Origin: Tildeniella nuda ZEHNDER 1965/U140
GTDB taxonomy: Bacteria > Cyanobacteriota > Cyanobacteriia > Leptolyngbyales > Leptolyngbyaceae
Length of the DNA: 64,000 nt
Direction of reading: 5' to 3'
Assembly: GCA_019358895.1 (NCBI GenBank)
Contig: JAHHIG010000002.1
Location: forward strand, 1-64,000
This document shows, piece after piece, positions 47,413 through 64,000 of the stretch. A program made the position numbers and the translations under genes. The notes below the pieces were generated by a model. That model searched no databases. It saw nothing but the letters and a program-made list of their open reading frames with translations, and was not told where the DNA came from. The first letter of the stretch is position 1. Every line of letters starts with the position of its first letter.

Positions 47413-47421
47413 TGGCATAAA

Positions 47422-47444: not shown

Positions 47445-47585
47445 GCGTTTTAAAGAAAGCCGGGTCTAGAGTCACCATTCTCAATAAGGTATCTCAACCT
47501 TACACATCCTGACACGGTTTCAAGCATTGATTGAGATACGATTGCGATACTGAATTCCACTGATAGCGACCTTTCAGGAGGGTAT

Positions 47586-49019: not shown

Positions 49020-49990
49020 GATGCTTCACCTCTATTGCTTGACGCTTGAGTGCTCTGGTCTTGCCTATCCTCCACACCGCTGTTGGTGATGATGAAACCC
49101 CATTCCTGGTAGAGTTTGCAAAGGTCTTGGACTAAATCAGTCCAGCCTTCAGCCCAGAGCTGCCGTAGTTTGCCGAGTGCCCAAGCCCGATCACCATTGA
49201 GTACCGCTTGAGCACACGCCATTTCAATTTGAAAGCGATCTGGAACGGGCGGCGGAACGTTTACCCCCTTTTTGGATTCGAGGTGGTTGAGAAAGTCTTT
49301 TTGGTTCGCTTCAACGGTTGCCTGTATTTCGACCCACTGCTCGATGAGAGCTGGATATTGCGGTAGTTGTTTGGCTCGGTCTAGTAACCACTCTCGGAAG
49401 GCTGGCAGAAAATCTTCGTTGAGTAAAAATTGACTGTTTTTTCCTGTTCTTTCTGCCTGTCTCTCTCTCGCATGTATGAGAGAGTGTGGATCAGTATGAA
49501 GAGTATGAGGAGGCTCAGAACCCTCTGCCTGCAAAGGTCTTAGCTCCTCATTTGGATCGTTTGATCCCGTTGATGGCAGGGAGATCTGGTTGGTGGCAAC
49601 GGGATCGTTCTGTCGCCCTTTGGATCGTTTTGTCGGAAGGCGGATCTCTTTGCCCGTAGAATGATCGCGGGTTTTGACTGAAATGGTTGTATTGCGGCAC
49701 TTCCAGCGCTCAATCTGGAAGTCAAACAGGTCGCAGTCTTCTAGTCGGCGGGCGGCTCTTTGCACGGTGCGAGGGTCTACGGACAGCAGAGCGGCAATTT
49801 CAACAGGTGGGGGAATGTCTACCCAGCGATCGCCATAGGGGTCAAGTTCCCAGAGGTAAAGCCAGAGGTCATATTGAGTCCCTGTGAGCTTTAGGGTTCG
49901 GGCATACCGAATTAAGTCTTTGGGAATCTGCACGAACTGGGGAGGCTTTTGTATCCCTGATGCTTCAGAAGGTGAGGCTGGATTTGTCAT
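49016..49990 (-). CDS. Winged-helix protein, replication-initiator-like
   Basis: 324-residue protein from ATG at 49990 (MTNPASP). The N-terminal half holds a winged helix (residues about 25-100: LTGTQYDLWLYLWELDP; VEIAALLSVDPRTVQRAARRLE) of the type common in phage and plasmid replication proteins of cyanobacteria. The middle (about 110-190) is low-complexity and basic (TKRSKGRQNDP). The C-terminal half (about 200-324) has helical sequence with no known motif (ALGKLRQLWAEGWTDLVQDL). A role in replication or partition of the element is inferred. It is coupled to the excisionase-like gene by a 4-base overlap. Confidence 0.62.
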   Translation of the reverse strand: MTNPASPSEASGIQKPPQFVQIPKDLIRYARTLKLTGTQYDLWLYLWELDPYGDRWVDIPPPVEIAALLSVDPRTVQRAARRLEDCDLFDFQIERWKCRNTTISVKTRDHSTGKEIRLPTKRSKGRQNDPVATNQISLPSTGSNDPNEELRPLQAEGSEPPHTLHTDPHSLIHARERQAERTGKNSQFLLNEDFLPAFREWLLDRAKQLPQYPALIEQWVEIQATVEANQKDFLNHLESKKGVNVPPPVPDRFQIEMACAQAVLNGDRAWALGKLRQLWAEGWTDLVQDLCKLYQEWGFIITNSGVEDRQDQSTQASSNRGEAS

Positions 49991-50046
49991 GATGCAGATA
50001 AGTACAAGTAGATGCCCCGCTGCTGGCTGTAGATGGGGCATTTTTC

Positions 50047-50211
50047 CTATGCAGGCTTTTGTTGTTCTAGGTAGAGAAGGGCAGCTTGTTCAATGAGGTC
50101 GGAGAGGTGACACCGCTCTTTAATCGCTTTGATCTGTAGTTGCTCCTTTAAGTCAGGGTTCATGCGAATCGTGACGTTTTCGCGTTGCTTAGGCAGAGAG
50201 GATTGGCTCAT
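50047..50211 (-). CDS. Ribbon-helix-helix DNA-binding protein
   Basis: 54-residue CopG/Arc-type protein from ATG at 50211 (MSQSSLPKQRENVTIRMN). The RHH fold is clear: strand VTIRMNPDLKEQLQIKA, then helix IKERCHLSDLIEQAALLYLEQ. It could be an antitoxin or a transcriptional repressor; no toxin gene is adjacent, so a repressor of the divergent promoter is favoured. It lies divergent from the XRE gene; the inverted repeat at 50218-50247 between the two is a candidate operator. Confidence 0.75.
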   Translation of the reverse strand: MSQSSLPKQRENVTIRMNPDLKEQLQIKAIKERCHLSDLIEQAALLYLEQQKPA

Positions 50212-50217
50212 GGCTTT

Positions 50218-50247
50218 GAACAAAACTATGTTCGCTTTTGAACGAAC
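50218..50247. promoter_or_regulatory. Inverted-repeat operator in divergent promoter
   Basis: GTTC-N6-GAAC at 50230-50243 (GTTCGCTTTTGAAC), flanked by an additional GAAC at 50218-50221 and GAAC at 50244-50247, so three or four GAAC/GTTC half-sites are spaced 10-12 bases apart. It overlaps the -35 box of the plus-strand promoter at 50238. Confidence 0.6.
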
Positions 50248-50266
50248 TATCATTCAATAGGATAAT
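50238..50266 (+). promoter_or_regulatory. Promoter of the XRE-ATPase-STAND operon
   Basis: TTGAAC (50238-50243), a 17-base spacer, then GATAAT (50261-50266): a good sigma-70-type promoter, about 65 bases before the GTG at 50337. The -35 box lies within the GTTC/GAAC inverted repeat. Confidence 0.65.
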
Positions 50267-50336
50267 ACATGATTAAGCAATCATTTGATTGTGTGAGAGT
50301 TAATTCTGTGTTTCCTTAGAGTGAGGGTTCGTTGCG

Positions 50337-50783
50337 GTGTTTGTGGACGAAAACGTACTGAAACGATTAGCGGCTGCAACGTTGGAGGCAAGGGGTGAGT
50401 TGTCCCAGCGTGAATTTGCCCAACTACTAGATGTGTCGCAATCGACGGTGCAATCGTGGGAGAACGGCAAGAATTTGCCGAACCTGGAGAATCTAGAGAA
50501 GCTTGCCCGGAGGCGGGGGATGCTGGTTGAGGACTTTGTCGCTTACCTGTATGGGCGAAATCGGGGACTAACGAGCAAGGACATCCTGGATCGAGTTGAG
50601 GTGATGCCATCGCGGGATTTTGCCCAGGTAATGCGGGTGATGGCGGATCGGTTGGATACGGCGAAGGATGCACCGCCCGTGGTGAAGCGGGAGAAGGTGG
50701 CGGGGAAGGAGGAGCCGCGAATCAGGTTGGAGTTGCCGCAGAAAACAGAAAGTTCTGAATTAAATAAGCTTCGAGAAGAATAA
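50337..50783 (+). CDS. XRE family regulator of the NTPase operon
   Basis: 148-residue protein with an N-terminal Cro/CI-type helix-turn-helix at about residues 10-62 (ELSQREFAQLLDVSQSTVQSWENGKNLPNLENLEKL). Residues about 65-148 are a basic/acidic helical tail without known motif. GTG start at 50337 follows a GAGTGAGGG sequence that may be the ribosome site. It is the first gene of a same-strand run with the ATPase (42 bases downstream) and the STAND-WD40 gene. It probably represses or senses, controlling the run, as in many regulated conflict systems. Confidence 0.85.
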   Translation: MFVDENVLKRLAAATLEARGELSQREFAQLLDVSQSTVQSWENGKNLPNLENLEKLARRRGMLVEDFVAYLYGRNRGLTSKDILDRVEVMPSRDFAQVMRVMADRLDTAKDAPPVVKREKVAGKEEPRIRLELPQKTESSELNKLREE

Positions 50784-50825
50784 AGAGAGTTGCCCGCCTC
50801 GCAGTTGATCAGAGAGAAACGCGTT

Positions 50826-52178
50826 ATGAGTCTTGATCGAGCTAAATTTCGCAGAGCGTGTGACCCCAGTAAGACGCTGGTGTTTAAAAACCCTGAAGAC
50901 AAAAAATACTACATTGACTTTGCTTCAGTGCGAGGCAGCGAAGTTATCGAGGAGCTGAAAGGCAACATTGTTGATTTCTTTGATGTGCCGACCTGTGCCT
51001 TGTTCACGGGGCATATTGGGTGTGGTAAATCAACGGAACTGCTGCGGCTGAAAGCGGAACTAGAGGATGACGGTTTCCATGTGGTCTACTTTGTATCGAG
51101 TGATGATCTGGAAATGGCAGATGTTGATATTAGTGATGTGCTCTTAGCGATCGCGCGTCGGATTAGTGAGAGCCTGGAAAACATTCAACTCAGTCCTCAA
51201 GCCACTGGCTTTCGAGGGTTACTGGATGCCACCAAGAAAGTGCTCATGACCGAAGTAGAGGTGAAGGCAGGCGCGAGTCTTTTTGGTGGCAAAGTGGGGG
51301 TGGACACCACCAAGCGAGAGGTTTCTCTATCGGCTGGCATTGCCGAGCTGACTGTAACTGCCAAGAATGATCAGGGTTTGCGGGAGAAGCTGAATCAGTT
51401 CCTGGGTCCTCAAAAGAATAAGCTGCTGGAGACGATTAACCAGGAGTTGATTGCACCCGCGATCGCCCAACTTCAGCAAACGGGCAAAAAGGGTTTGGTC
51501 GTGATTATCGACAACCTGGATCGGATTGATAACCGTCAGAAGTCAGCCAGTCGATCGCAGCAGGAGTACCTGTTTATCGACCAAAACGAGTGTTTGCTCG
51601 GCTTACACTGTCATGTGGTGTACACCATGCCGCTGGCACTCAAATTCTCGCCCGATTACGAGACGCTGAAGCAGTGGTTTGGGGAAGAACCCAAGATGCT
51701 GCCGATGGTGCCAGTGCAGTATCGAGACGGCAGTGACTGTGAGACAGGTATGAACCTATTGCGTCAGATGGTGCTGGCGAGAGCATTTCCAGAACTCAGC
51801 CATGAGGAGCGGTTCAGCCAGATCACAGAGGTGTTTGACAGTGTAGAGAGTCTCGATCGGCTGTGCCGCATTTGTGGTGGGCACGTCCGGGATCTACTGC
51901 GACTCTTGAGTGAATGGATTGCCAAAGGGAAGCAACTGCCGCTAGCGGGTGATGTACTGGAGAGGCTCATTCGTGCCAGCCACAATGATACGACCATGAC
52001 CATTGCTAAAGAGGAATGGGAACTTTTGCGGCAAGTGCACCAGTCGCGGCGGGTCGGTCCTGATTTGGGCTACCAAACCTTGATTCGACGGCGGCTGGTC
52101 TTTGAGTACCGTGACAGCGATGGTTCCTGGTTCACAGTCAATCCCATTTTGCTGGGAGCAAGTGAGTTGCAGGTATGA
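50826..52178 (+). CDS. P-loop ATPase partner of the STAND protein
   Basis: 450 residues from ATG at 50826 (MSLDRAKFRRACDPSKTLVF). An upstream frame extension to 50790 is not supported. AAA-like P-loop ATPase: Walker A GHIGCGKST with Lys68, Walker B LVVIIDNLDRID at about residues 224-236, an insert at 125-200 rich in Gly/Val (VEVKAGASLFGGKVGVD), then a C-terminal helical, winged-helix-like part (about 380-450, LRQVHQSRRVGPDLGYQTLIRRRLV). No membrane segment. Its stop overlaps the STAND gene start as ATGA (52175-52178), so the two proteins are made together and probably act as a pair. Confidence 0.82.
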   Translation: MSLDRAKFRRACDPSKTLVFKNPEDKKYYIDFASVRGSEVIEELKGNIVDFFDVPTCALFTGHIGCGKSTELLRLKAELEDDGFHVVYFVSSDDLEMADVDISDVLLAIARRISESLENIQLSPQATGFRGLLDATKKVLMTEVEVKAGASLFGGKVGVDTTKREVSLSAGIAELTVTAKNDQGLREKLNQFLGPQKNKLLETINQELIAPAIAQLQQTGKKGLVVIIDNLDRIDNRQKSASRSQQEYLFIDQNECLLGLHCHVVYTMPLALKFSPDYETLKQWFGEEPKMLPMVPVQYRDGSDCETGMNLLRQMVLARAFPELSHEERFSQITEVFDSVESLDRLCRICGGHVRDLLRLLSEWIAKGKQLPLAGDVLERLIRASHNDTTMTIAKEEWELLRQVHQSRRVGPDLGYQTLIRRRLVFEYRDSDGSWFTVNPILLGASELQV

Positions 52179-55100
52179 GCGATCTCCCCTCGCAAGCGTT
52201 GATTGTGCATAACCAGTCGGAACTGGAGGATCTTGCCTGGGAACTTGAGTCGGCAGAGGGACAGTTTTCGCTGATGCTCGCGCGTTGCAACTATGCTCGC
52301 TTGCGGGACGAGTTGGTGGAACATCTGCGGCAGATTTGCTTTGTGGTGATCCGGGTCATGGTGTTGCAGCCCTCAGAAACAGCACTTTATACCCGGATTC
52401 AGAGTGAACTCAAGGGAGAACAACCCGGTGCGTTGATGGTGTTTGGCTTGGAGACGGTGGCTGACCTAGCGCAACTGCTATCCAACGCTAATCAAGTGCG
52501 GGAGGAGTTTCGCAAAAACTGTTCGTTCCCGATCGTGCTGTGGGTGACGGATGACGTGATGAAGGGGTTAGTTCATGCCGCTCCTGATCTGGAAAGCTGG
52601 TCAACCAAAACGCACTTTACACTACCGCTAGAAGCCCTCACACGATCACTAAAGCAAGCCGCAGATCATCTCTTCACTACCTTATTAGCTCCAGTAGCTC
52701 ACACATCCTTCGATGCATGGCGGCAAACCCTTGACTTAGGATTTCTGCAACCTTCAGAAGTGCGGTCTGCTATGCAAGATCTCCAACTTCAGGGAGAGAC
52801 TCTCGATCTAAGCCTGCAAGCCAGCCTAGATTTTGCGAAAGGCTTAAATGCCACAAATCTAACTGAGGCATTGGTGTTCTTTGAGCAGAGCTTACGATTT
52901 TGGCAGGAAGAAGAGAAGAGGGGAGAGGACGAACTGCCTAGCCTGAAAGTTGGCTTGCTGCTGATGCATATTGGGCGTGCCAAGGTTGCGATCGCGGAGA
53001 CTGCATCGCAGCAGCCCCCGGACTGGGAACCCATTCGGCAAACGTTGCAGCAGGCGATCGCCCGGTTTGAGCAGGCGGATCGTCTCGACCTGGTAGCGCT
53101 TTGCATTCCTCAACTGGAACGGGTGTTGCAGAAATTGCAGGCGTGGAATGAACTAGAGAGTGCTGCTAGAAAGGGTCTGGAACTGCATAAGGTCTACAGG
53201 AACCAGACACGCCTCTCTCAAGATTACGGCTTCCTGGCACGAGCCCTGCTGGAACGGCAGCAGTGGGCAGCAGCACGGGAGGCAGCGAACCAGGCACTAA
53301 CGGAGCTAGCAGGCGAACCAGACGATCGAAACTGGTTACGAGGACTCTATCGATTGTTTTTGGCACAAGCAGAGCAGCAATTGAGAGACCCTAAAACAGC
53401 GATCGCTCACCTGGAAGAAGCAAATGCTAGGGACGTGAGCGATCGCGGTTATCCGAAAATTGCCATCCAAATTTTGCGGAAACTGCGGGAACTGCACTTT
53501 GAGCAGAAGGATTACGTAGAGGCATTTCAGGCAAAACAAGAGCGTTTATCGATTGAGCAACAGTATGGGATTCGGGCATTTGTGGGCGCTGGACGATTGC
53601 GACCGCAGCGGCAAGCGGTGGTAACAGAGTTTCAGGCACCAACAGAAGGCATGGTTGCTCCCGAAATCGCGGCGGCTGGACGGCAACGGGATTTGGAGCG
53701 ACTGATCGAACGGGTGGAATTACGGGAATATCGCTTGATTGTGATTCACGGTAGCTCCGGAGTGGGCAAGAGTTCACTGGTCAATGCAGGACTAATACCA
53801 GCGCTACAGAAGCCAATTGCCGCACGCGATAATGTGCCGATCGTGATGCGAGTGTATACCCAATGGGTGAATGAGTTAGAAAGGCTACTGAGTGAGAGGT
53901 TGGGGGATCAGGCAGCAGCAGACATTCAAACCTTAGAAAGCAGCATTCAAACCTTACTCGCCCAATTGCGGCAACTCGATCAACGCAACCTGCGAACGGT
54001 GCTGATCTTCGATCAGTTTGAAGAGTTCTTTTTCACCTATCCCAAACCAGAAGACCGTAAACCGTTCTTTGACTTCCTGGTCAAATGTTTGCAGATTTTG
54101 TCAATCAAAGTGTTCCTGTCGCTTCGTGAGGACTACCTACACTTGCTGCTGGAATTTAATCGTTTGTTGGCAACAGTGAAAGAGCCTAAAACTGGCATTG
54201 ATGTTTTGAGCCGTAATGTGCTCTATAGTTTGGGCAATTTCTCGCTTGAAGACACGAGGGCAATTATTCATAGTCTGACAAATCGTGCTCACTTTTACCT
54301 GGAGCCAGCATTAGTCGATCAACTGGTAGTCGATCTGGCGGGTGATTTAGGGGAGGTGCGCCCGATCGAGCTTCAAGTGGTAGGGGCACAGTTGCAGGCA
54401 GATATGGTTACGACCCTGCCTCAATACCAGGCATTGGGCAGCAAACCCAAGGAAACATTGGTCGATCGCTACCTCTCGGAAGTGATTGCCGACTGTGGCG
54501 CTGAAAATCAGCAGTTAGCAGAACTGGTGCTATACCTGCTGACTGACGAAAAGGATACCCGTCCTCTTAAAACCAGAGTGGAGTTAGAGAAGGAATTGCA
54601 GGTACTAGAAGTGCTGGCAGAGACAACCACTTCCCTGGATCTAGTGCTGACGATCATTGTGAAATCTGGGTTAGTGGTGTTGCTTCCAGAAGCCCCTCAA
54701 GATCGTTACCAACTGGTGCACGACTACCTCGCGGCGTTTATCCGGCAGAAGCAGAAGGCAGATCTTGTCGAGGCACTGAAGCGCAGCAAGGAGGAGTTAA
54801 ATCAGGTTCTCAAGCGAAAATTGCGAGACTCCCGGATTGCAGGAGGCATTATGGGAGTGCTGACAGTTTTGGCGATCGGGCTGGGAATCAAATTCGCCTT
54901 CAACGCAGCCGATGCCAAATTAGACGCTCTTGCCCAATCCTCAGGATCGTTATTTAATGCCAATCGAAACTTTGATGCCTTGATAATCAGCATCAAAGCT
55001 GGGAAACAATTGAAGGGATCGTTGGACGTGAACCCAGATACTCGAATGAAGGTTATCACCTCTTTGCAACAGGCAATTCACGGCGTTAAAGAATTAAATA

Positions 55101-57826
55101 GCCTGGAAGGACATGGTAGCGGTGTTTCTAGCATTAGTATCAGTCCAAATGGTAAAACCATTGCCTCAATCGGTAAGGATAATACCATCAAGCTATGGAG
55201 TAGTGATGGGAAAGAGTTAAGGACGTTACAACAAGGCAAAGACAACAAGAATTCCCGCTTCAGTGGCATCCAATTTAGTCCAGATGGTCAATTGCTTGCT
55301 GCGGCAGATAAAGAGAACACAATTGCACTTTGGGAGCTTAGCGGAGAAAGACGACGGCTCTTCAAGGGACACACCGAGTGGGTATATGGGTTAAGCTTCA
55401 GTCCAGACGGGAAGATGCTTGCCTCAGCCAGTGTGGACAAAACGATTAAGCTCTGGAGTATCAACAACGGCAAGGAACTTAAAACGCTTAGGGGACATAC
55501 TGATGCTGTTACTGATGTTAGCTTTAGCCCTGATGGGAAAACGATTGCTTCAGCTAGTGACGACAAAACGATTAAGCTCTGGAGTCTTGATGGAAAAGAA
55601 CAGCGAACCCTGAAAAGTCATACGTTTGGGATTGTGACTGTCCGATTCAGCCCGAACAGTAAGCTGCTTGTTTCAGCGAGTCATGACAAGACCATCAAAC
55701 TTTGGAGTCTTGACGGTAAAGAACCGCAAACCTTCAGCGGACATAGTCAGGCTGTTCAAGCAGCTATTTTCAGCCCAGATGGCAGGACAATTGCTTCAAC
55801 CAGTGCTGATAAAACTATTAAACTATGGAACCTCTTTGGAGAGGAACTCCAGACTTTTAAGGGGCATAGTGACCAAATCAACGATATAGTTTTTAGCCCG
55901 GATGCTAAGACGATCATTTCAGCAAGCGATGACAGAGCTATTAAGCAATGGACCGTTGATTCAAAGAACTTCTACCCCATCAGAGGGCACACAGATATCG
56001 TTTCCAGCGCAAATCTTAGCCCGGATGGCACAACGATTGCCTCAGGTAGTAGGGATGGGACTATGAAGCTGTGGAAGGTTTCTGGGAAGGGACTAAAGAC
56101 GTTTGGAGGCTATGACGGTTGGATCAATGGCATCAGTTTCAGCCCAGATGGGAAGACGATCGCAGTAGGCAGTTCAGACAACTCGATTAAGTTGTGGAAT
56201 CTGGATGGGAAAGAACTCAAAACTCTCACGGGACATACTGGCTCTGTCTGGGGTGTCAGTTTTAGCCCTGATGGTAGCCTGATTGCCTCAGCTAGTGCCG
56301 ATAAGACGGTTAAGCTGTGGAATCTTAATGGAGATATGCTAAAAACATTTAAGGGACACACGGATGTAATATTGGGTGTCAGTTTCAGCCCTGATGGTAG
56401 CCTGATTGCCTCAGCTAGTGCCGATAAGACGGTTAAGCTGTGGAATCTGGATGGCGATTTGCTGACAACCTTCAAGGGACATACTGATGCACTTCATAGC
56501 GCCAGTTTCAGCCCGGATGGGAAATTACTCGTTTCGGGCAGTTCCGATAAAACTGTAAGACTCTGGACGGTTGATGGTTCGTTGAAATGGCTTAAAACCA
56601 TAGAATTTGACGATTGGATTACAACAGCTCGTTTCAGCCCAGATGGAAAATCCATTATTGCCGCCTGTGGAAACGGTACCATCCGTCTTTTCAGCCTTGA
56701 TGGCAAAGTAATTCACACATTTCGGGGACATTCTAGCGATGGAGTTCTCAGTGCCAACTTCAGCTCCGATGGGCAGACTCTTGTTTCTGGCGGAGATGAC
56801 CATTTGGTTAAGCTCTGGAAGCTTAATGGCGTGTTGCTCCAGACTTTTCCAGAGCAGAAGTATCGTAGGCATACTGCTGTGAACCGCGCCAGTTTCAGCC
56901 CCGATGGTAGAACCATTGCTTCAGCAGGAGAGGATAGTACCATTAAGCTGTGGAATCTTGAGCGAAAAGAACTTCAGACATTGAGAGGGCATAGTGATAG
57001 TATAACGGCTGTTAGCTTTAGCCCCGATGGCGCGTTGTTGGCTTCAGCTAGTCGAGATGGCACGATTAAGCTGTGGGATGCACAGGGAAAGGTATTGCAA
57101 ACCCTCGTAGGGCATGATGATGTAGTTTACGATGTCAGTTTCAGTCCAAATGGCAAACTGATTGCTTCAGCGAGTGGAGACAAAACAATTAAGCTTTGGA
57201 ACCTGGATGGAAAAAATCTACAAACTTTTGTGGAGGCGGATGAAGTATATGGCATCAGCTTTAGCCCTGATAGCAAATTGATTGCCTCTGCCAGTAGGGA
57301 TCGGACTGTAAAACTTCGGAATCTGGATGGCATAGTAATTCACACGATGAGTAAGCATTCTAGCTGGGTCAGCCAAGTTAGTTTTAGTCCCGATGGTAAA
57401 CTGATTGCCTCAGCTAGTTGGGATAATACTGTTAAGCTTTGGGACTTAAATGGGCGTGAACTTAGAACGCTTAAGGGGCACAGCAGCAACGTAAGTTCTG
57501 CCTACTTCAGCCCTGATGGGAAGAAACTTATCTCTAGTAGCAGTGATGGAACCGTTAAATTCTGGAGTATAGATGGCACGCTTCTACAAAGTATTTCTGA
57601 TTCTGAAACTGTAAACAGCACCTTATCAGCTCTTGACGCAAGGCTTAGCCCAGATGGTCTAACGATCGCCGTTGCTACTGATAGTGATGGGTTAGTTCTA
57701 TGGAATATGAGCCTGGACACTCTTCTTGTAGAAGCCTGCACCAAAGCTCGTGCTTATTTGAGGACCAGCAGCAATCTTGAAAAGAGCGATCGAACTCTCT
57801 GCGATGACGTTAGCACTCAAAAATAG
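52175..57826 (+). CDS. STAND NTPase with 21 WD40 blades
   Basis: 1883-residue protein. Residues about 1-175 form a domain found at the start of cyanobacterial conflict NTPases (ALIVHNQSELEDLAWELESA). A helical TPR-like region (about 215-485) follows. The nSTAND NTPase has Walker A GSSGVGKSS with Lys532 and Walker B LIFDQFEEFFF at about 609-620. A transmembrane-like helix is at about 889-910 (GGIMGVLTVLAIGLGIKF). Residues about 974-1848 contain 21 WD40 repeats with GH and LW marks, enough for three seven-bladed propellers, then a Cys-containing tail. A ligand-sensing, NTP-driven oligomeric switch is the likely role. The membrane helix suggests the effector acts at the membrane. I infer an anti-phage or conflict function from architecture. 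Confidence 0.87.
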   Translation: MSDLPSQALIVHNQSELEDLAWELESAEGQFSLMLARCNYARLRDELVEHLRQICFVVIRVMVLQPSETALYTRIQSELKGEQPGALMVFGLETVADLAQLLSNANQVREEFRKNCSFPIVLWVTDDVMKGLVHAAPDLESWSTKTHFTLPLEALTRSLKQAADHLFTTLLAPVAHTSFDAWRQTLDLGFLQPSEVRSAMQDLQLQGETLDLSLQASLDFAKGLNATNLTEALVFFEQSLRFWQEEEKRGEDELPSLKVGLLLMHIGRAKVAIAETASQQPPDWEPIRQTLQQAIARFEQADRLDLVALCIPQLERVLQKLQAWNELESAARKGLELHKVYRNQTRLSQDYGFLARALLERQQWAAAREAANQALTELAGEPDDRNWLRGLYRLFLAQAEQQLRDPKTAIAHLEEANARDVSDRGYPKIAIQILRKLRELHFEQKDYVEAFQAKQERLSIEQQYGIRAFVGAGRLRPQRQAVVTEFQAPTEGMVAPEIAAAGRQRDLERLIERVELREYRLIVIHGSSGVGKSSLVNAGLIPALQKPIAARDNVPIVMRVYTQWVNELERLLSERLGDQAAADIQTLESSIQTLLAQLRQLDQRNLRTVLIFDQFEEFFFTYPKPEDRKPFFDFLVKCLQILSIKVFLSLREDYLHLLLEFNRLLATVKEPKTGIDVLSRNVLYSLGNFSLEDTRAIIHSLTNRAHFYLEPALVDQLVVDLAGDLGEVRPIELQVVGAQLQADMVTTLPQYQALGSKPKETLVDRYLSEVIADCGAENQQLAELVLYLLTDEKDTRPLKTRVELEKELQVLEVLAETTTSLDLVLTIIVKSGLVVLLPEAPQDRYQLVHDYLAAFIRQKQKADLVEALKRSKEELNQVLKRKLRDSRIAGGIMGVLTVLAIGLGIKFAFNAADAKLDALAQSSGSLFNANRNFDALIISIKAGKQLKGSLDVNPDTRMKVITSLQQAIHGVKELNSLEGHGSGVSSISISPNGKTIASIGKDNTIKLWSSDGKELRTLQQGKDNKNSRFSGIQFSPDGQLLAAADKENTIALWELSGERRRLFKGHTEWVYGLSFSPDGKMLASASVDKTIKLWSINNGKELKTLRGHTDAVTDVSFSPDGKTIASASDDKTIKLWSLDGKEQRTLKSHTFGIVTVRFSPNSKLLVSASHDKTIKLWSLDGKEPQTFSGHSQAVQAAIFSPDGRTIASTSADKTIKLWNLFGEELQTFKGHSDQINDIVFSPDAKTIISASDDRAIKQWTVDSKNFYPIRGHTDIVSSANLSPDGTTIASGSRDGTMKLWKVSGKGLKTFGGYDGWINGISFSPDGKTIAVGSSDNSIKLWNLDGKELKTLTGHTGSVWGVSFSPDGSLIASASADKTVKLWNLNGDMLKTFKGHTDVILGVSFSPDGSLIASASADKTVKLWNLDGDLLTTFKGHTDALHSASFSPDGKLLVSGSSDKTVRLWTVDGSLKWLKTIEFDDWITTARFSPDGKSIIAACGNGTIRLFSLDGKVIHTFRGHSSDGVLSANFSSDGQTLVSGGDDHLVKLWKLNGVLLQTFPEQKYRRHTAVNRASFSPDGRTIASAGEDSTIKLWNLERKELQTLRGHSDSITAVSFSPDGALLASASRDGTIKLWDAQGKVLQTLVGHDDVVYDVSFSPNGKLIASASGDKTIKLWNLDGKNLQTFVEADEVYGISFSPDSKLIASASRDRTVKLRNLDGIVIHTMSKHSSWVSQVSFSPDGKLIASASWDNTVKLWDLNGRELRTLKGHSSNVSSAYFSPDGKKLISSSSDGTVKFWSIDGTLLQSISDSETVNSTLSALDARLSPDGLTIAVATDSDGLVLWNMSLDTLLVEACTKARAYLRTSSNLEKSDRTLCDDVSTQK
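56251..56448. repeat. Near-identical WD40 repeats (recent duplication)
   Basis: The 75-base blocks at 56251-56325 and 56374-56448 differ at a single position (GTCAGTTTTAGCCC versus GTCAGTTTCAGCCC). Other blades are more divergent, so this pair (blades 10 and 11) arose by a recent tandem duplication or gene conversion. Confidence 0.9.
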
Positions 57827-57832
57827 ATTGAA

Positions 57833-57956
57833 CTAGAACTCTGCAACCTCCTCTAAAAACGATCGCACCTTTTCGTTTCTCGTCTTACCGTATGCCCGGT
57901 AGAGTTTAAATTTAGCAATTGTGCCTGCGAGAAAGGCACGATCGCCGCTCCTATGT
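57833..57956 (-). pseudogene. C-terminal remnant of an unknown gene
   Basis: A minus-strand frame of about 40 codons without a start, ending with the motif KTRNEKVRSFLEEVAEF and a stop at 57833. Amino-acid composition looks coding (Lys/Glu/Arg alternation and helix-like). It overlaps the 3' end of the VapC gene in another frame. It could be a leftover of a gene cut by arrival of the VapBC module, or a chance frame. Confidence 0.3.
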
Positions 57957-58358
57957 CTCTAACTCCCAATCTTCCATCTGCAACGCCTCAACCCGGCTAA
58001 ACTCACGAGTATTGTGGGTAACGAGCGTCAGATGATGGGCGATCGCGATCGCCGCAATCTGAACATCATAGGGACCAATGGGAATTCCTTGAGTCGCAAG
58101 CTGACCTCGGATACGACCGCAGATGAGCGCTACCTGATCATCAAACGGTAGAGACACAAATTGCGCCACAAATGCTTGCTGGATGCGGAGACTACGGGTT
58201 GGATCGCGGCTCAACATCGCTCCGTAAAACAACTCTGTTTTGACAATGGAGCAGAGCGCGATATCGCTGGGAGGTAATGCTGCCAGCCTGCGAATAAGCC
58301 CTGCATTCTGTCCGCGTAAGTAGACAATGCAGGCATTGGTGTCTAGTAAATAGATCAT
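57951..58358 (-). CDS. vapC: PIN-domain toxin VapC
   Basis: 135-residue PIN-domain ribonuclease, the toxin of a type II VapBC toxin-antitoxin pair. The acidic Mg2+ site is Asp6 (LLDTNA), Glu42 (KTELFYGA), Asp98 (GPYDVQIAA) and Asn116 (VTHNTREF), in the order of the family. ATG at 58358 overlaps the VapB stop by four bases (58355-58358). The same-strand partner and overlap identify the pair. The target RNA (tRNA or rRNA) cannot be inferred. Confidence 0.93.
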   Translation of the reverse strand: MIYLLDTNACIVYLRGQNAGLIRRLAALPPSDIALCSIVKTELFYGAMLSRDPTRSLRIQQAFVAQFVSLPFDDQVALICGRIRGQLATQGIPIGPYDVQIAAIAIAHHLTLVTHNTREFSRVEALQMEDWELET

Positions 58359-58606
58359 TCCAGAAGCACTCGCGCTTCATACTCTCCCTGAGGCTGGCGA
58401 ACAAATGAGTCATCATCCGCGAAAGCGCCCGCAGTCTCGGCAAAAAAACCTTCGGGCCAGCCCAACTCTACACCCAGCTTCCTGTCCAAATTGGCAGGAA
58501 TGGGCTGAATCGTAATACTGACATCCTGATCCTTCAGGTCGTCTGGGACTTGCAGGTGCAGAACACCATCTGATCCAACATGAGAGCGGAGAGTAATACG
58601 TTGCAT
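58355..58606 (-). CDS. VapB-type antitoxin
   Basis: 83-residue small protein directly upstream of VapC, overlapping by four bases. The N-terminal about 30 residues (RITLRSHVGSDGVLHLQVP) suggest a beta-rich AbrB-like or related DNA-binding end, and the C-terminal part is acidic (ADDDSFVRQPQGEYEA) as expected for a toxin-binding tail. It would neutralise VapC and autoregulate the pair. Confidence 0.75.
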   Translation of the reverse strand: MQRITLRSHVGSDGVLHLQVPDDLKDQDVSITIQPIPANLDRKLGVELGWPEGFFAETAGAFADDDSFVRQPQGEYEARVLLE

Positions 58607-58715
58607 AGTTGAGTTGAAGTAATGATCAAAAATATCTGAGTCTAGAACAATATTGAGGACTTCAATCCAGGTTGACGTTCAGCCTTTTGTCAGCCTTTGC
58701 ATTGGTCATGCTCTC

Positions 58716-59309
58716 TTATCCTGCCTGAATTCCTTTACGGAACTCGCGCATTGCCTCCAGTCTAGAAGTCTCACCCATCAACACACAGCGGGTCAGCAAC
58801 TCAACGTCAAGCCCTGTCAATTCAGGAATCTCACTGCGGTTAACCTGATCGTACCCATTTCCACGCAAGCGATACAGCGTAAACACCCCATCCTGCCAGA
58901 ACCACACCTCCGGTACGCCTAATGCCTGATAGCGCTGCAATTTGCTGGATCCACCGCTGGTAAAGACGACTTCGATTGACAGGTCTGGAACAGGCTTGGA
59001 TGCTCCGATGCAGTAAGATTCATCTGCCTGAGCCGATGCGGTTCCTTCCCGTTCCTGCGTCATCGAACCAGTGGGCTCAAACTCAATGCCATGCTCTTCA
59101 AAGTAGATGCCTAACAGTAAGGCAATGATGCTTTTGAACACTTCATGGTCACGTCCCGGCATAAGAATCTCGATCGTACCGTCGTAATAGAACAAGCGAG
59201 TACCTGGGGAGTCCTCAAGCCCCTGCTGAATCAGCTTGAATTGCTCCCAGGAACGTCCTGACAGCACAATCCGTTGATCAGTTGTTTGGGGTGCCGTTGC
59301 AATCGTCAT
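58716..59309 (-). CDS. Uma2 family (DUF820) endonuclease-like protein, second copy
   Basis: 197-residue Uma2 protein, related in fold but not in detail to the one at 27661-28221. Motifs: SWEQFKLIQQGLEDSPGTR, YDGTIEILMPG, PDLSIEVVFTSG with the acidic core, and VPEVWFWQDG. It has a good ribosome site (GAGAGGTGA before ATG at 59309). In this element it could be cargo or a passenger nuclease; function is unknown. Confidence 0.86.
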   Translation of the reverse strand: MTIATAPQTTDQRIVLSGRSWEQFKLIQQGLEDSPGTRLFYYDGTIEILMPGRDHEVFKSIIALLLGIYFEEHGIEFEPTGSMTQEREGTASAQADESYCIGASKPVPDLSIEVVFTSGGSSKLQRYQALGVPEVWFWQDGVFTLYRLRGNGYDQVNRSEIPELTGLDVELLTRCVLMGETSRLEAMREFRKGIQAG

Positions 59310-59485
59310 CGTTCACCTCTCTCGCTACGTTCACACAGCATCTCTAAAAGCATCACCAACGCCCTTGGGAACCGTTATAGCTGATATGCTTCCTATCACT
59401 ATGCTATCAATGCTGACCGCTCCTTTAAGCGTACATTCTTTGCCAGGGAGGCAGACTACGCTGGCGATCGATCTTTTTCGGCTGG

Positions 59486-59791
59486 CTACAGGTCTACAAC
59501 CTCGACACTCGTACAAGCCATCTGAAACCGACAGCCGACCGCAGCAGCCAACGCGATCGCGGTATCCAGGGTGCAGCTCCCCACCTTAAATGCTCGCTCA
59601 ACTTGAGGGCGGCGATTGACCGTAGTGGCGACCTGATCGCCATTAGCCTTACTAATCTCAACATATTCCCGTACTAATTCGGCTATCCATTTCTTCTCAC
59701 CCCATTTAGCAACTGCACGGGCTTTGATGGCTTCCAGTATGGCGTTAGCGCTTGTTGTCTCCATGAAGTCAAGGCAGAACAGCATAGCCAT
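59486..59791 (-). CDS. Small protein of unknown function in the phage-like block
   Basis: 101-residue protein, helical (ILEAIKARAVAKWGEKKWIAELVREYVEISK), followed by QVERAFKVGSCTLDTAIALAAAVG, a segment that resembles a short DNA-binding helix-turn-helix. The start could be ATG 59791 or ATG 59764. It is 18 bases after the ATPase stop on the same strand, so it belongs to the same minus-strand block. Confidence 0.6.
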   Translation of the reverse strand: MAMLFCLDFMETTSANAILEAIKARAVAKWGEKKWIAELVREYVEISKANGDQVATTVNRRPQVERAFKVGSCTLDTAIALAAAVGCRFQMACTSVEVVDL

Positions 59792-59809
59792 CTTAGTTTA
59801 ATCCTGCTC

Positions 59810-60673
59810 TTAACTGTGAGTGTGAGCCGCCATCTTTGCAAGCTCATCAATGAGTTCATTGACTTGCTGAGACGATAACTGCATCGGGTCTGCAACCTCG
59901 AAACGATTTTTTAGCAGCACTTTCACTGATTCGACATCTAAGCCGATCGCTGTCCTTGCCGCCTTTACCCGATCGCGTTTTGATTGTCCGGTTTCTGGCA
60001 TTTCAACGCCATCTGTGAGCCACATTAGGAGCAGTTCAGCCAACTCTCGACCAGGATTAAGGTGAGTTGTGTTGCTCAAGCCGGGACACCGAGATTTTGA
60101 GATGTTGAGAACGTGATCGCTGTTAAGTTCTCCAGCTAAATCAAACTCGTATTCGATACCTGCCGCTTGCATAGGGGCAGTACCAACCTTTGTAGGTGAT
60201 AGAGTCTCCTTACCGCTTTTGTTGGTCGTTGTAGTCATAATCCATTCAGTCTTGCTCCGCATTGTCCCAATCAGATGGGCACTGCTACTGAGCATCGCAT
60301 CGACTAGGGCACGTTCCAGAGGCTTGATTTTTGCCCAATTGCTAAAGTTACCGCCTGCCATATCAAGCTCTGCGAACCAGGCATGAGAGAGCGAATCAAT
60401 GATAATCACGTCATAGCCTGCTGCATCGGCTGCTTTGATTGCCTCCACGTAGCGAGAGGGGTGAAAGTCGGTCAAGTTGCAGACATCGAAATTGAAGCGA
60501 TCGGCGTACTTACTGGCAGATCCTCTTTCGGAGTCGATGACTGCGATTGACTGCCCCAAATGGGAAGCGATCGCCAAGGCTGAATAAGTTTTGCCTGAGC
60601 CACTGGCACCGGACAAGGCAAGACGCAAGCGTGATTGAATTTTGGTCGCTTTTTGAAACATTGGAGTACTCAC
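59810..60673 (-). CDS. RecA/Sak4-like ATPase, phage type
   Basis: 287-residue P-loop ATPase of the phage nucleotide-binding (AAA_24/Sak4-like) type, which act in single-strand annealing or recombination. Walker A is LALSGASGSGKTYSALAIA, and Walker B is YDVIIIDSLSHAWF. The middle has KPLERALVDAMLSSSAHLIGTMRSKTEW, the sensor-like region. The start is ATG 60673. It is co-directional with small unknown genes on both sides, and suggests phage ancestry for this part of the element. Confidence 0.83.
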   Translation of the reverse strand: MSTPMFQKATKIQSRLRLALSGASGSGKTYSALAIASHLGQSIAVIDSERGSASKYADRFNFDVCNLTDFHPSRYVEAIKAADAAGYDVIIIDSLSHAWFAELDMAGGNFSNWAKIKPLERALVDAMLSSSAHLIGTMRSKTEWIMTTTTNKSGKETLSPTKVGTAPMQAAGIEYEFDLAGELNSDHVLNISKSRCPGLSNTTHLNPGRELAELLLMWLTDGVEMPETGQSKRDRVKAARTAIGLDVESVKVLLKNRFEVADPMQLSSQQVNELIDELAKMAAHTHS

Positions 60674-60722
60674 TAGAGAAATGTGCAGTGAGCCTTTTTG
60701 AAGACTTGCTCAGGTCAGATTC

Positions 60723-60893
60723 TTAGTTCCAGGATTCGATTAGCTCTTCTGCGTAAAACTCTGCTTCCTCCTGACTCATGGCTGTTTGAGTGACCGTAAT
60801 GCGGTTATTCCCCTCATTCACAATCGCTTCCCATAACTCATTAGGAAGCTCACAAATTTCGACTAGAAAACCTTTGTAGAGATAGTTGTGCAT
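60723..60893 (-). CDS. Small protein of unknown function
   Basis: 56-residue acidic protein from ATG at 60893 (MHNYLYKGFLVEICELPN). It contains ITVTQTAMSQEEAEFYAEELIESWN, helical and acidic, without recognised domain. No good ribosome site is visible. It lies 49 bases upstream of the RecA/Sak4-like gene on the same strand, in a run of small phage-type genes, which supports it weakly. Confidence 0.5.
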   Translation of the reverse strand: MHNYLYKGFLVEICELPNELWEAIVNEGNNRITVTQTAMSQEEAEFYAEELIESWN

Positions 60894-60994
60894 AGTTCGT
60901 ATGAGCAAAAGGGTTAAAAGTTCTCACTGGGCAGTTTTTGGCACTGCCCCAGCCATTGAGTTAGCGGTTATCAATAAACCATCTGCCACACCCC

Positions 60995-61261
60995 TTACAA
61001 TTCGTCGCGGTGGTCGGGGTCGGGGCTATCCACATACCCGAAAGCAAAGTGCTGATAATGGCTGTAGTGCTGAATCCTACCGTCGCTATCGGTGGGCAAC
61101 GTCCGAATCGTGGCAAGGTAGCCGCCAAGATAAGCCTCATCCTGGTACTGAGGCAGTTTCCCAAACCCTGCATCGTTGCAACCGTCTAAGTGGCGCTCTT
61201 CCGCTATCTGTTGCTGAGTGCGATCGCGTTGCTCTAGTGCTTGTAAATCTTGAGGTGACAT
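60995..61261 (-). CDS. Small protein of unknown function
   Basis: 88 residues from ATG at 61261, preceded by GGAGA (in TGGAGATTTAATT) as a plausible ribosome site. The sequence is rich in Gln, Asp and Tyr (QALEQRDRTQQQIAEERHLD; IQHYSHYQHFAFGYVDSPD). No known domain. Same strand as its neighbours in the minus-strand block; a frame on the opposite strand overlaps but looks like an artefact. Confidence 0.55.
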   Translation of the reverse strand: MSPQDLQALEQRDRTQQQIAEERHLDGCNDAGFGKLPQYQDEAYLGGYLATIRTLPTDSDGRIQHYSHYQHFAFGYVDSPDPDHRDEL

Positions 61262-61347
61262 AATTAAATCTCCATCTATGTTCTGGGTGGAAAGCCTCCC
61301 TAGTTCGCGCTAGGGGGGTAGTTTTGCGCCATACCCAGGGCAGGAAG

Positions 61348-61770
61348 CTAACGAGCTAAATACTCGCGTAATGAGCCATAACCGAGATGCCCTAGCACTG
61401 CATAGGCGTGTTTGCAGCAGGCTAGACCGTTGAGAAACTGGATCTGATTGTTGAAGTCATCGCAAGAGCAGATAGGCTGACCAGAGCCAATGTTGATTTG
61501 ATAGGCAGTGCCTTTGCTCTCGTTGCGAACGCTGTAGATATGCCCCTGAAAGACGCTCTTAGTCACGGTTAGCGCCTTTGCTGCTGCCTTGCGATGCTCA
61601 ACAAAATGAGCCTTGAATGCTGACTTGCTGATGAACGTGGGGCGGCGACCAGCCACATGAACCCAAATGACGTAGAAGAACTTTTGAATGCGAATAGAAA
61701 CGCCAACCGCTAGACCCAACAGGCGACGAATGGCAGAAACGGAATAGATGAGATTGAAAGCTGTGACCAT
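61348..61770 (-). CDS. SWIM zinc-finger protein
   Basis: 140-residue protein from ATG at 61770, basic N-terminal half (IRRLLGLAVGVSIRIQKFF; AKALTVTKSVF) and a SWIM-type zinc finger at the C-terminus: Cys101-Ser-Cys103 and Cys119-Lys-His121 (CxCx15CxH). SWIM fingers occur in DNA-binding, transposase-related and Shu-type recombination proteins. It is the first gene of the minus-strand block; AT-rich iterated TAGTATA motifs in its upstream region (61787-61842) are likely control sites. Confidence 0.65.
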   Translation of the reverse strand: MVTAFNLIYSVSAIRRLLGLAVGVSIRIQKFFYVIWVHVAGRRPTFISKSAFKAHFVEHRKAAAKALTVTKSVFQGHIYSVRNESKGTAYQINIGSGQPICSCDDFNNQIQFLNGLACCKHAYAVLGHLGYGSLREYLAR

Positions 61771-61786
61771 GCGAGAAACCAAACTC

Positions 61787-61842
61787 TACTAAAATTAGTA
61801 TATCAAAATAGCCTAGTTAGTATACCAATTCTAGTATGATTT
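61787..61842. promoter_or_regulatory. AT-rich iterated TTAGTATA motifs before the SWIM gene
   Basis: Perfect inverted repeat TACTAA-AA-TTAGTA at 61787-61800, then GTTAGTATACC (about 61815-61825) and CTAGTATGA (about 61831-61839). Similar motif ACCATACTAATTATGGT occurs at 62223-62239. On the minus strand the TATACT sequences look like -10 boxes, so these are candidate operators over the promoter. They could instead be iterons. Confidence 0.5.
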
Positions 61843-61860
61843 CATCATTTCTTTACACAA

Positions 61861-61890
61861 GAAAAAGCCCCTCTGATCTAGCAGAAGGGC
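61861..61890 (-). terminator. Minus-strand terminator at the end of the T-poor region
   Basis: On the minus strand: GCCCTTCTGC-TAGATC-AGAGGGGC, one mismatch in the stem, then TTTTTC. It would stop transcription coming leftward from about 62230. Confidence 0.6.
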
Positions 61891-62222
61891 AGTGGTGACA
61901 CAGCCTAAACTGACTACCAGGGCAGTAACGACCCAGCCGTGCGTGACCCGTGAGCCACTGGACGAGGCACGGCAGACAGCAACGCAGACGACAACCACAC
62001 TAGCGGACAGGACAGCAGCACAGCCGTAGAACCACCACAGGGAGCTGAAGCTAACAACGAACCGCCGGAGGAGTGCAACCAGAGAGCAAAACCACAGGGC
62101 AAGGCTGCGCTAGCTGGGAGCCATAGCACTACGCAACCAGACCGATGAGAAGCTGGACGGCACCATGAGCCAGAGGGAAAGGTAAAAGGACAAAGCAAGG
62201 GCATAGGTAGAAAACAAGCTCA
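61891..62222 (-). ncRNA. Possible non-coding RNA in a T-depleted segment
   Basis: The plus strand between about 61921 and 62220 has 22 T in 300 bases (about 7 percent), against about a quarter in neighbouring DNA. On the minus strand this is an A-poor, U/G/C-rich transcript. It is followed on the minus strand by a terminator (61861-61890) and preceded by a promoter-like TTACGA-18-TATACC (near 62260-62235) that overlaps the palindrome at 62223-62239. The long minus-strand frame 61914-62204 lacks Asp, Glu, Lys, Asn and Ile, which is not protein-like. A plus-strand frame also exists only because stop codons need T. Confidence 0.35.
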
Positions 62223-62239
62223 ACCATACTAATTATGGT
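62223..62239. promoter_or_regulatory. Palindromic operator ACCATACTAATTATGGT
   Basis: Inverted repeat ACCATA-CTAAT-TATGGT, overlapping a minus-strand -10-like TATACC. It shares the TACTAAT motif with the sites before the SWIM gene. Candidate binding site of an element-encoded regulator. Confidence 0.5.
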
Positions 62240-62709
62240 ATAAAAACGAGGCATGGAAAATCGTAAAAAACCTCTTGACAGCTAGACCGAGCCGGGGCAT
62301 TTTCTCTATATGTTCATCTCCGGGTTTGCTCCAGAATCCTGCTTTCTTCTTCCTACGCGATGGCTGAGGATTAAAACTTTCACTAGATGCAGATAACCCT
62401 GTGAGGGGCTGCTATCTCTTGAAATAGTGCGAAGCGCTGCTGATGGAGGTAGCGAGACACGAACGAGCAATCTCTTACCGCTTTTTAGACTTCCGATGTT
62501 CCTAACAGAAAGTAGCTTTTGTGGTGGAATTTCTTAATTAGAAGGCAAGAAACTTTTTTGAAAGTAGTTTGGCTTCCTGGCTCCCGCACGGCTGACCAAC
62601 GGAAAGCGGTGCTCTTCCTAAAGCCCTCGGCGCTTCGCGGAGGTCGGCGAGGTTATAAGCTTCAGCCACTGGTTCGGATCAGGAGGAATGATGTGACTAG
62701 GCACGACAC
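62240..62709. other. Intergenic, no supported gene
   Basis: About 470 bases between the T-poor segment and the NACHT leader. A plus-strand TTGACA at 62275-62280 has no -10 box at the usual distance. A stem CCTCG...CGAGG is near 62625-62655. A 64-codon frame (62519-62713) has no domain and ends in a 4-base overlap with the next mini-frame, so it is listed only as part of that chain. Confidence 0.4.
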
Positions 62710-62850
62710 ATGAGCGAGAAAGCGATCGCACATCTGGCAGAAAGCGTCCTATGAGACAACCTGTGACCGTCCTACAGGACAAAGCGCTTGTGGAGGATTA
62801 AGATGCAAGCAGGAGTCACACCTGAGCGGTCAGTATGTTGGAATGGTTAG
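62710..62850 (+). other. Chain of three overlapping mini-frames before NACHT
   Basis: 62710-62754 (ATG, 14 codons), 62751-62801 (ATG, 16 codons, starting in the ATGA overlap) and 62803-62850 (ATG, 15 codons, GGAGGA ribosome site at 62792-62797). The last overlaps the NACHT start codon (62835). The order resembles a translationally coupled leader; chance is possible because such short frames are common. Confidence 0.35.
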
Positions 62851-64000
62851 CCACGATCGGCGCAGCAGAACTGGGAAAAGTGGTGTTTGAGCAAGTCCTC
62901 AAGCTAGGACAAGCGGCGGCTGAGGACTACGTGAAAGACTTTTTCAAGGGCTGTCTCAAGGGCGGGATGCTGGCAGCGAAACCGGAGGTGGCGAGGAAGG
63001 CAGCAGCGGCAGCGGTGCAAGCGTTTTTACTGTTGGTGGTGGATGAACTCGAAGACCAGGACATCGCCAAAGCTGAGATCCGCGATCGCTACGACCAGCC
63101 AATGGTGCAGTTTGTGAAAGATGAGACGGTCAAGCCCATCCTGGGAAGTGCTTTTGAGAAAGACTGTCGAGCGATCGACGTGGCAGCCCTAGCCACTCTC
63201 TGGCAGCGATCGACCTTCAAAGGGCAACCGTTTCCGACTTTACCAGAAGGGTTTGACTGGGCGCATATTGGCAATGAGTACTTGAGAAGAGTACGACGAC
63301 TGGTGCGTGAGACTCCAGAACTAAAAGCGCTCCTAGAAACAGAACTACTGGAAGACATTGCCCGCAACACGGCTCAAGTTTCTCCAGGCTTTGATGTTGC
63401 TAAGTATCGGGAAAGCCTGCAAACCAGTTATGGCTATCTGAAGCTTTACACTCTCGACAGTACCGATCGGGTTGATGCGATCAGGTTATGGCAGATGTTC
63501 ATCGAGCAGACGGTACGGGAAGCGTTGCCGCCGATGCGGTATGACTTGCCCCTGGATCTGAAACGTCAATTGCAAGAACAGGGGCAACTGGAGGCAGATC
63601 TTTCGCCTGAGTCGTTGGAGCACTATCGGCGGGAGTATTTCCAGCAACCTTCACGGAAAGCCTTTGAGGCGATCGCCGCTTCTCCACGGGCTGTCATCCT
63701 GGGTGATCCGGGGGCTGGGAAATCTAGCCTATTACAGTATCTCGCCCTGGAGTGGGTAGAGGGCAAAACTGAGATGTTACCGTTACTGATTGAGTTGCGA
63801 GAGTATGCCATCGCCCACGCAAACGGGTTTTTGGAATTCCTGCACAAAGGACGGGGTGCTGATTGGCAGTTTGACCAGCAACAGTTGCATCAGTACCTAT
63901 TGGAGCATCCGACTCTGGTGATGTTTGACGGGCTGGATGAGGTGTTTGATCGCGCTACTCAATCTACGGTCACTGATGACATCATCCGCTTTGCCCAGCA
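62835..64000 (+). CDS. NACHT NTPase, partial (right end outside window)
   Basis: 388 codons of an open frame from ATG at 62835 that runs off the window edge. N-terminal about 270 residues, helical (LEWLATIGAAELGKVVFEQVLKLGQAA), with no recognised domain. The NACHT/STAND P-loop has VILGDPGAGKSSLLQYLAL with Lys296, and Walker B is LVMFDGLDEVFD with Asp365, the NACHT-type pattern of small acidic residues. Downstream sensor repeats are not visible. bNACHT proteins are known anti-phage NTPases. No strong ribosome site lies directly before the ATG; the nearby GGAGGA serves the preceding mini-frame. Confidence 0.85.
   Translation, partial: MLEWLATIGAAELGKVVFEQVLKLGQAAAEDYVKDFFKGCLKGGMLAAKPEVARKAAAAAVQAFLLLVVDELEDQDIAKAEIRDRYDQPMVQFVKDETVKPILGSAFEKDCRAIDVAALATLWQRSTFKGQPFPTLPEGFDWAHIGNEYLRRVRRLVRETPELKALLETELLEDIARNTAQVSPGFDVAKYRESLQTSYGYLKLYTLDSTDRVDAIRLWQMFIEQTVREALPPMRYDLPLDLKRQLQEQGQLEADLSPESLEHYRREYFQQPSRKAFEAIAASPRAVILGDPGAGKSSLLQYLALEWVEGKTEMLPLLIELREYAIAHANGFLEFLHKGRGADWQFDQQQLHQYLLEHPTLVMFDGLDEVFDRATQSTVTDDIIRFAQ

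What the first reader, a model, noticed from the sequence alone, without database searches (positions are those of the whole stretch)
62835..64000. NACHT NTPase gene truncated by the window edge
The frame has P-loop Lys296 and NACHT-type Walker B FDGLDE but no stop inside the window. Together with the STAND gene 5 kb away, it makes a second NTPase immune receptor on the same element, suggesting a defence island.
Basis: partly seen in the sequence, partly recalled or inferred. Interest (0 to 1): 0.6.

Follow-up and report, generated by a model that had tools for sequence, protein, structure and literature searches.

The report
Cyanobacterial NLR-like receptor with swappable sensor
The cut-off gene is an intact bacterial relative of our NOD-like immune receptors, carried on a mobile DNA element, and near-identical relatives show that its sensing end is swapped wholesale while the rest stays the same, which suggests a way for bacteria to re-aim an immune receptor.

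Summary
The contig continues past the window edge and the gene is complete: 62835-65966, 1043 aa, no internal stop. It is NNH2 - NACHT - winged helix - HEAT repeats - short conserved C-terminal cap, so the 'unknown' N-terminus is Pfam NNH2. Its predicted fold matches NLRC4, NLRP3 and NOD2. It lies, with the nSTAND1-WD40 gene, in a 42.2-kb integrative element at tRNA-Pro (48-bp repeat at both ends; empty site in a relative).

The unexpected part is how the sensor evolves. Among 23 full-length relatives the NACHT core is 83% identical (median pairwise), the HEAT sensor 24%, the cap 63%. A Stenomitos relative is 89-93% identical in DNA over about 10 kb of the same element, except for about 1 kb of sensor that does not align. 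Synonymous divergence is low in the core, lower again in the cap, and near-saturated in the sensor. So the sensor was replaced, not merely mutated fast.

In 11 of 22 loci the cap DNA recurs downstream, same strand, between toxin-antitoxin genes; essentially no other part of the gene does.

Protein: new member of a known kind. Cassette-like sensor exchange: new variant. Phage defence is inferred, not shown.

The parts
62835..64000 (+). 5' part of the NNH2-NACHT-HEAT gene; it continues to C11:65966 (L016:835-3966), 1043 aa
62907..63458 (+). NNH2 (PF22734) N-terminal helical domain, residues 25-208, E 1e-58
63693..64000 (+). NACHT domain (PF05729), residues 287-435, continuing to C11:64139
63702..63725 (+). 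Walker A GDPGAGKS (residues 290-297, Lys296)
63924..63941 (+). Walker B FDGLDE (residues 364-369)
47338..47413 (+). tRNA-Pro(GGG) used as attachment site; 48-bp att core 47366-47413 repeated exactly at C11:89596-89643
47586..48752 (+). tyrosine integrase of the element (PF00589)
47366..64000 (.). left part of the 42.2-kb integrative element (ends at about C11:89643)
   Evidence: 48-bp repeats 42,230 bp apart; G036 runs from the tRNA directly into the sequence right of the second repeat
50337..50783 (+). HTH regulator (PF01381) at the head of the neighbouring STAND operon
50790..52178 (+). AAA-type NTPase in the STAND operon
58716..59309 (-). Uma2-like gene, PADLOC candidate PDC-S17 (E 3e-70)

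Best explanation
It is a single-protein bacterial NLR-like (STAND/NACHT) immune receptor. By analogy with NLRs, the HEAT array at the C-terminus binds a trigger, probably a phage product; the NACHT-winged-helix core then exchanges ADP for ATP and oligomerises; and the clustered NNH2 helical domain carries out or recruits a cell-killing response. Its target range is reset by recombination: the HEAT sensor (left breakpoint between about residues 520 and 656, right breakpoint near residue 998, roughly 0.8-1.3 kb) is replaced as a block by exchange between homologues that share a conserved core on the left and a conserved 3' cap of about 95 bp on the right. Shown here: the architecture, the intact gene, the NLR-like predicted fold, carriage on an integrative element, and block replacement of the sensor. 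Inferred: phage sensing, nucleotide-driven oligomerisation, NNH2 as the killing module, and homologous recombination as the route.
For: Domains NNH2, NACHT, HEAT. Full-length AlphaFold2 model aligns to NLRC4 (Z 18.7, 428 residues, 4.6 A), NLRP3 and NOD2 (Z 16-17); the sequence search of solved structures gives NOD2 alone, weakly (E 0.011). Sensor replacement: median pairwise identity in 23 homologues NNH2 54, NACHT 83, sensor 24, cap 63%. For the window gene, L068 (same element) matches 58716-64804 at 89-93% and 65830-69672 at 93% DNA identity, with only the sensor unmatched. dS against L068 and L098 is 0.4-0.85 in NNH2/NACHT, 1.8 to saturated from about residue 520 to 995, and about 1.0 in the cap. 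In four other pairs dS is 0-0.33 in the core, 2.5 or saturated in the sensor, 0.26-0.59 in the cap. L087/L088 are 98.9% identical over 2862 bp, then about 830 bp unalignable, then 89%.
Against: No functional test of any kind. NNH2 has no match of known function, so the output is unknown. PADLOC hits are weak. L068 and L098 carry frameshifts, so the closest comparisons are with broken copies. Cap dS for the window gene (about 1.0) is higher than in NNH2/NACHT, so the right edge is less clean by dS than the L068 flank match suggests.
Confidence: 0.75

Rival explanations
1. The sensor is not replaced. It evolves very fast by point mutation and repeat gain or loss under positive selection.
For: In pairs that kept their sensor, sensor dN is 2-5 times core dN at similar or lower dS (L071/L072, L074/L082). 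HEAT arrays differ in length among homologues.
Against: Synonymous sites are saturated in the sensor while dS is 0-0.33 in the adjacent core and 0.26-0.59 in the cap; selection on protein sequence does not do that. DNA identity falls from about 99% to unalignable and back to 89% within one gene.
Confidence: 0.08
2. The sensor is diversified by a diversity-generating retroelement, as reported for NACHT targets in multicellular bacteria (PMC10907252).
For: Same class of receptor, and cyanobacteria are among hosts of such systems.
Against: Those targets have a short variable repeat in a C-type lectin fold changed at adenines; here about 1 kb of HEAT coding DNA is replaced, with synonymous sites saturated. 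I saw no reverse transcriptase among the ORFs read around the gene, but did not search for one by profile.
Confidence: 0.02
3. The apparent swaps are assembly chimaeras between similar genes.
For: L088 is a 3.9-kb contig in a bin labelled Planctomycetaceae, probably mis-binned, and many loci are MAGs.
Against: The pattern holds on long contigs and non-MAG records (Tychonema BBK16 78.8 kb, Stenomitos frigidus ULC18 77 kb, Nodosilinea P-1105 149 kb, Nodosilinea nodulosa PCC 7104 6.1 Mb). In L068 identity resumes beyond the sensor for 3.8 kb.
Confidence: 0.04
4. It is a STAND-type switch for something other than phage defence, such as developmental signalling or kin recognition in filamentous cyanobacteria.
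For: STAND proteins include regulators as well as immune receptors (established knowledge); the relatives are nearly all filamentous cyanobacteria.
Against: Carriage on an integrative element absent from a sister genome, patchy occurrence (16 of 42 genomes), frequent broken copies and sensor replacement fit a conflict system better than a core regulator.
Confidence: 0.12

Closest known systems
Bacterial NLR-related bNACHT proteins (e.g. bNACHT25/32 and bNACHT02/12; PMC12169576)
   Same: Single protein with a central NACHT module between an N-terminal module and a C-terminal sensing part; bNACHT proteins defend against phage.
   Different: bNACHT25/32 have a PD-(D/E)XK nuclease N-terminus and an NCH1 domain, bNACHT02/12 a SNaCT domain; this one has NNH2 and HEAT repeats, and was not tested against phage.
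Animal NLRs (NLRC4, NLRP3, NOD2)
   Same: Predicted fold of the NACHT, helical and winged-helix part (Z 16-19); tripartite logic.
   Different: HEAT repeats instead of leucine-rich repeats; NNH2 instead of CARD or pyrin; sequence identity only 14-18%.
Avs antiviral STAND receptors (Avs4, 8dgf)
   Same: STAND NTPase with a long C-terminal repeat sensor; Avs4 appears among fold matches.
   Different: Weak match (rank 25, TM 0.13), no Avs name among the PADLOC hits at E 0.01 or better, different effector and sensor repeats.
NACHT proteins with retroelement-diversified sensors (PMC10907252)
   Same: NACHT receptor with a sensor that is diversified apart from the rest of the protein.
   Different: Here about 1 kb of HEAT coding DNA is exchanged as a block; no lectin fold and no reverse transcriptase seen.
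Rhs/CDI toxins with exchangeable C-terminal tips and orphan tips downstream (recalled, not tested)
   Same: Conserved core with an exchangeable 3' module, and remnants downstream on the same strand.
   Different: The exchanged part is a sensor; downstream copies hold only the cap DNA, with toxin-antitoxin genes between them.

Membership tests
NACHT clade of STAND NTPases | Pfam NACHT match over the curated cut-off | tested here: met
   48.5 bits against 26.7
NACHT clade of STAND NTPases | intact Walker A lysine and acidic Walker B of NACHT type | tested here: met
   GDPGAGKS with K296 and FDGLDE, conserved in 30 homologues
NACHT clade of STAND NTPases | NLR-like NACHT, helical and winged-helix fold | tested here: met
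   NLRC4 Z 18.7, NLRP3 Z about 17, NOD2 Z 16.4; predicted model, pLDDT 74.6
NNH2 (NACHT N-terminal helical domain 2) | Pfam PF22734 match over the curated cut-off in front of a NACHT domain | tested here: met
   198.3 bits against 27, residues 25-208
Bacterial NLR-related immune receptors | N-terminal module, central STAND, C-terminal repeat sensor in one protein | tested here: met
   NNH2 - NACHT - HEAT
Bacterial NLR-related immune receptors | protects against phage, dependent on the P-loop | not testable with these tools
   needs an experiment
Avs (antiviral STAND) types 1-5 | sequence match to an Avs family model | tested here: inconclusive
   no Avs name among PADLOC hits at E 0.01 or better, but PADLOC names and coverage for distant members were not checked; weak fold match to Avs4
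Integrative element at a tRNA gene | integrase next to a tRNA gene, direct repeat at both ends, empty site in a relative | tested here: met
Retroelement-diversified NACHT receptor | reverse transcriptase and template repeat beside a variable lectin-fold C-terminus | not tested
   no profile search for a reverse transcriptase was run; the C-terminus is HEAT, not a lectin fold

The most novel reading that the evidence does not exclude
The 3' cap of the receptor gene, about 95 bp, is a cassette boundary. Its DNA recurs in same-strand arrays downstream of the gene in relatives (up to 5 copies about 650 bp apart), separated by toxin-antitoxin modules. Recombination at the cap lets the HEAT sensor be exchanged while toxin-antitoxin modules are gained or left behind, making a sensor-exchange locus for a bacterial NLR-like receptor that needs no reverse transcriptase.
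Probability: 0.3. Interest if true: 0.8.

Novelty: new variant of a known kind. Interest (0 to 1): 0.58.

Why it matters
How bacterial NLR-like receptors change what they recognise is poorly understood. Here natural genes with nearly identical effector and NTPase parts carry unrelated sensors, in one case at the same place in the same element. They are ready-made swap experiments: moving one sensor block between two such genes should move specificity. If the cap repeat proves to be the exchange point, it gives a searchable signature of receptor re-aiming in cyanobacteria and links NLR-like genes to toxin-antitoxin arrays.

Tried and rejected
Silent full-length sensor cassettes downstream of the gene: rejected; the downstream copies are cap-only DNA (roughly 35-155 bp), some with an insertion inside the repeat. 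Dispersed repeat in the window's own genome: none, a single cap copy. Special DNA-level conservation of the cap: four-fold-site identity is 53%, only slightly above parts of the NACHT domain (46-51%), so not convincing on its own. Upstream mini-ORF at 62803 overlapping the start: not visible in homologues. NNH2 as a known enzyme: no significant Foldseek match in the PDB (best E 1.2) and no VIA-align Z of 5 or more among Foldseek's candidates; this does not prove a new fold. Phage-borne copies: none in 50,697 phage records. Literature: no paper in the held library uses the phrase 'NACHT N-terminal helical', and searches for sensor swapping in NLR-like proteins found no report of this pattern; the library lacks most subscription papers, so this is weak evidence.

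Full report
Observation. The frame at 62835-64000 is real. The window is C11:1-64000 of a 6.08-Mb assembly, and the contig continues: the gene closes at C11:65966 with 1043 codons and no internal stop. The host is a filamentous cyanobacterium of the Leptolyngbya/Stenomitos kind, judged from the closest named relatives.

Anatomy. Pfam gives NNH2 at residues 25-208 (E 1e-58), NACHT at 287-435 and HEAT repeats in the C-terminal part. An AlphaFold2 model of the whole protein (30 homologues, mean pLDDT 74.6, pTM 0.56) aligns best to NLRC4, NLRP7, NLRP3 and NOD2 (Z 16-19 over about 400 residues) and, in its C-terminal part, to generic HEAT proteins. The model of residues 1-290 (59 homologues; pLDDT about 90 in residues 51-160) is nearly all helical and has no significant PDB match. 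The killing step is therefore unknown; an adaptor or membrane-acting helical bundle is my inference.

The element. A tRNA-Pro(GGG) gene at 47338-47413 is followed by a tyrosine integrase (47586-48752). The last 48 bp of the tRNA gene recur 42,230 bp downstream at C11:89596-89643. In G036, a genome of the same genus, the sequence passes from this tRNA directly into what lies right of the second copy: an empty site. The NACHT gene and the STAND-WD40 gene with its HTH and AAA partners (50337-57826) both sit inside. So do a PDC-S17/Uma2 gene and a PD-Lambda-2_B-like HTH-ImmA gene, a DUF559 gene and, near the right end, a T4SS-coupling-type ATPase. 'Defence-rich mobile element' is fair; protection is not shown.

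Relatives. Close relatives occur in 16 of 42 genomes of the family, own genome included, and in 80 fetched loci, nearly all filamentous cyanobacteria. One cyanobacterial plasmid has a relative (Gloeocapsa PCC 7428, 41.5%); no phage record does. Several copies are broken by frameshifts or insertions. In L096 and L100 the NNH2 part is replaced by an unrelated N-terminus of about 100 aa while the rest stays 64-79% identical, so the effector end is exchangeable too.

Sensor replacement. Across 23 full-length homologues, mean pairwise identity is 0.5-0.9 up to residue 650, 0.1-0.3 from there to about 1000, and 0.5-0.7 in the last 43 residues. Medians of pairs: NNH2 54%, NACHT 83%, sensor 24%, cap 63%. 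Individual pairs show the cause. L087 and L088 are 98.9% identical over 2862 bp, ending near codon 644; then about 830 bp do not align; then 227 bp match at 89%. For the window's own gene, the Stenomitos rutilans contig L068 is the same element: it matches 58716-64804 at 89-93% and 65830-69672 at 93%, and only the sensor DNA between is unmatched. Synonymous divergence separates replacement from fast mutation. In four pairs dS is 0-0.33 in NNH2 and NACHT, 2.5 or saturated in the sensor, and 0.26-0.59 in the cap. In two pairs that kept their sensor, sensor dS is no higher than core dS, while sensor dN is 2-5 times core dN. The window gene shows the same step against L068 and L098: dS 0.4-0.85 in NNH2/NACHT, 1.8 to saturated from about residue 520 to 995, about 1.0 in the cap. 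Sensors are also shared across unlike N-termini (L069/L087: NNH2 49%, sensor 52%). I take block replacement as shown. Homologous recombination through the flanking conserved DNA is the simplest route, but is inferred.

Cap repeats. Tiling the gene in 43-codon pieces against the flanks of 22 loci (105 kb upstream, 120 kb downstream), only the cap tile (residues 990-1032) has repeated extra copies: 15 downstream on the same strand, none upstream, none reversed, in 11 loci (in L078 the copy abuts the gene). All other tiles give none, except one upstream match at L069. The copies begin near the same point and span about 95 bp. The spacers carry HigB, PIN, ParE and Y1-transposase genes. One genome has five copies at about 650-bp spacing, and two genomes (G026, G028) keep a cap beside small toxin-antitoxin-like genes with no receptor gene in the stretch fetched. 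The window genome has one cap copy only. Whether the cap is a recombination site, a left-over of past exchanges or a mobile repeat is open.

How it probably works. By comparison with NLRs: the HEAT array senses a phage product, NACHT switches and oligomerises, NNH2 acts. Exchange of the sensor would change what is sensed and keep the output. No functional step has been tested here.

Verdict. Observation confirmed; interpretation partly supported. The protein is a new member of a known kind. Block exchange of the sensor with cap repeats is, as far as the held literature shows, an undescribed variant.

Noticed in passing
L077:8883-11836, L129:8658-10490, L202:3735-6154, L197:5593-8245: Downstream of the receptor gene (or of a HEAT gene fragment in L197), copies of the cap repeat of about 95 bp alternate with toxin-antitoxin genes (HigB, PIN, ParE) and a Y1 transposase, like a cassette array; origin unexplained.
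   Followed up: partly
L198:3376-3612 and L199:3168-3362: Cap repeat followed by small toxin-antitoxin-like genes with no receptor gene in the fetched stretch.
   Followed up: partly
L096:5701-8097, L100: Same NACHT-HEAT protein with an unrelated N-terminus of about 100 aa (no Pfam match) in place of NNH2: an effector swap.
   Followed up: partly
window 52175-57826: Large STAND protein (1883 aa) with 19 WD40 repeat matches, preceded by an HTH and an AAA NTPase gene in apparent operon; possibly a separate conflict system on the same element.
   Followed up: no
window 59813-60673: AAA_24 (phage-type) NTPase gene inside the element; with the integrase it hints at a phage- or plasmid-derived backbone.
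   Followed up: no
L063:8932-12741 (C11:90932-94741): Another WD40 protein with an AAA-like N-terminus (1269 aa) just outside the right end of the element, also present at the empty site in G036.
   Followed up: no
L016:6154-6534 and L063:7745-8119: Two similar cupin-like genes, one inside the element and one just outside its right end, suggesting past exchange between element and host.
   Followed up: no
window 36316-44979: Four tandem porin-like genes (S-layer-homology type, similar N-termini) left of the element.
   Followed up: no
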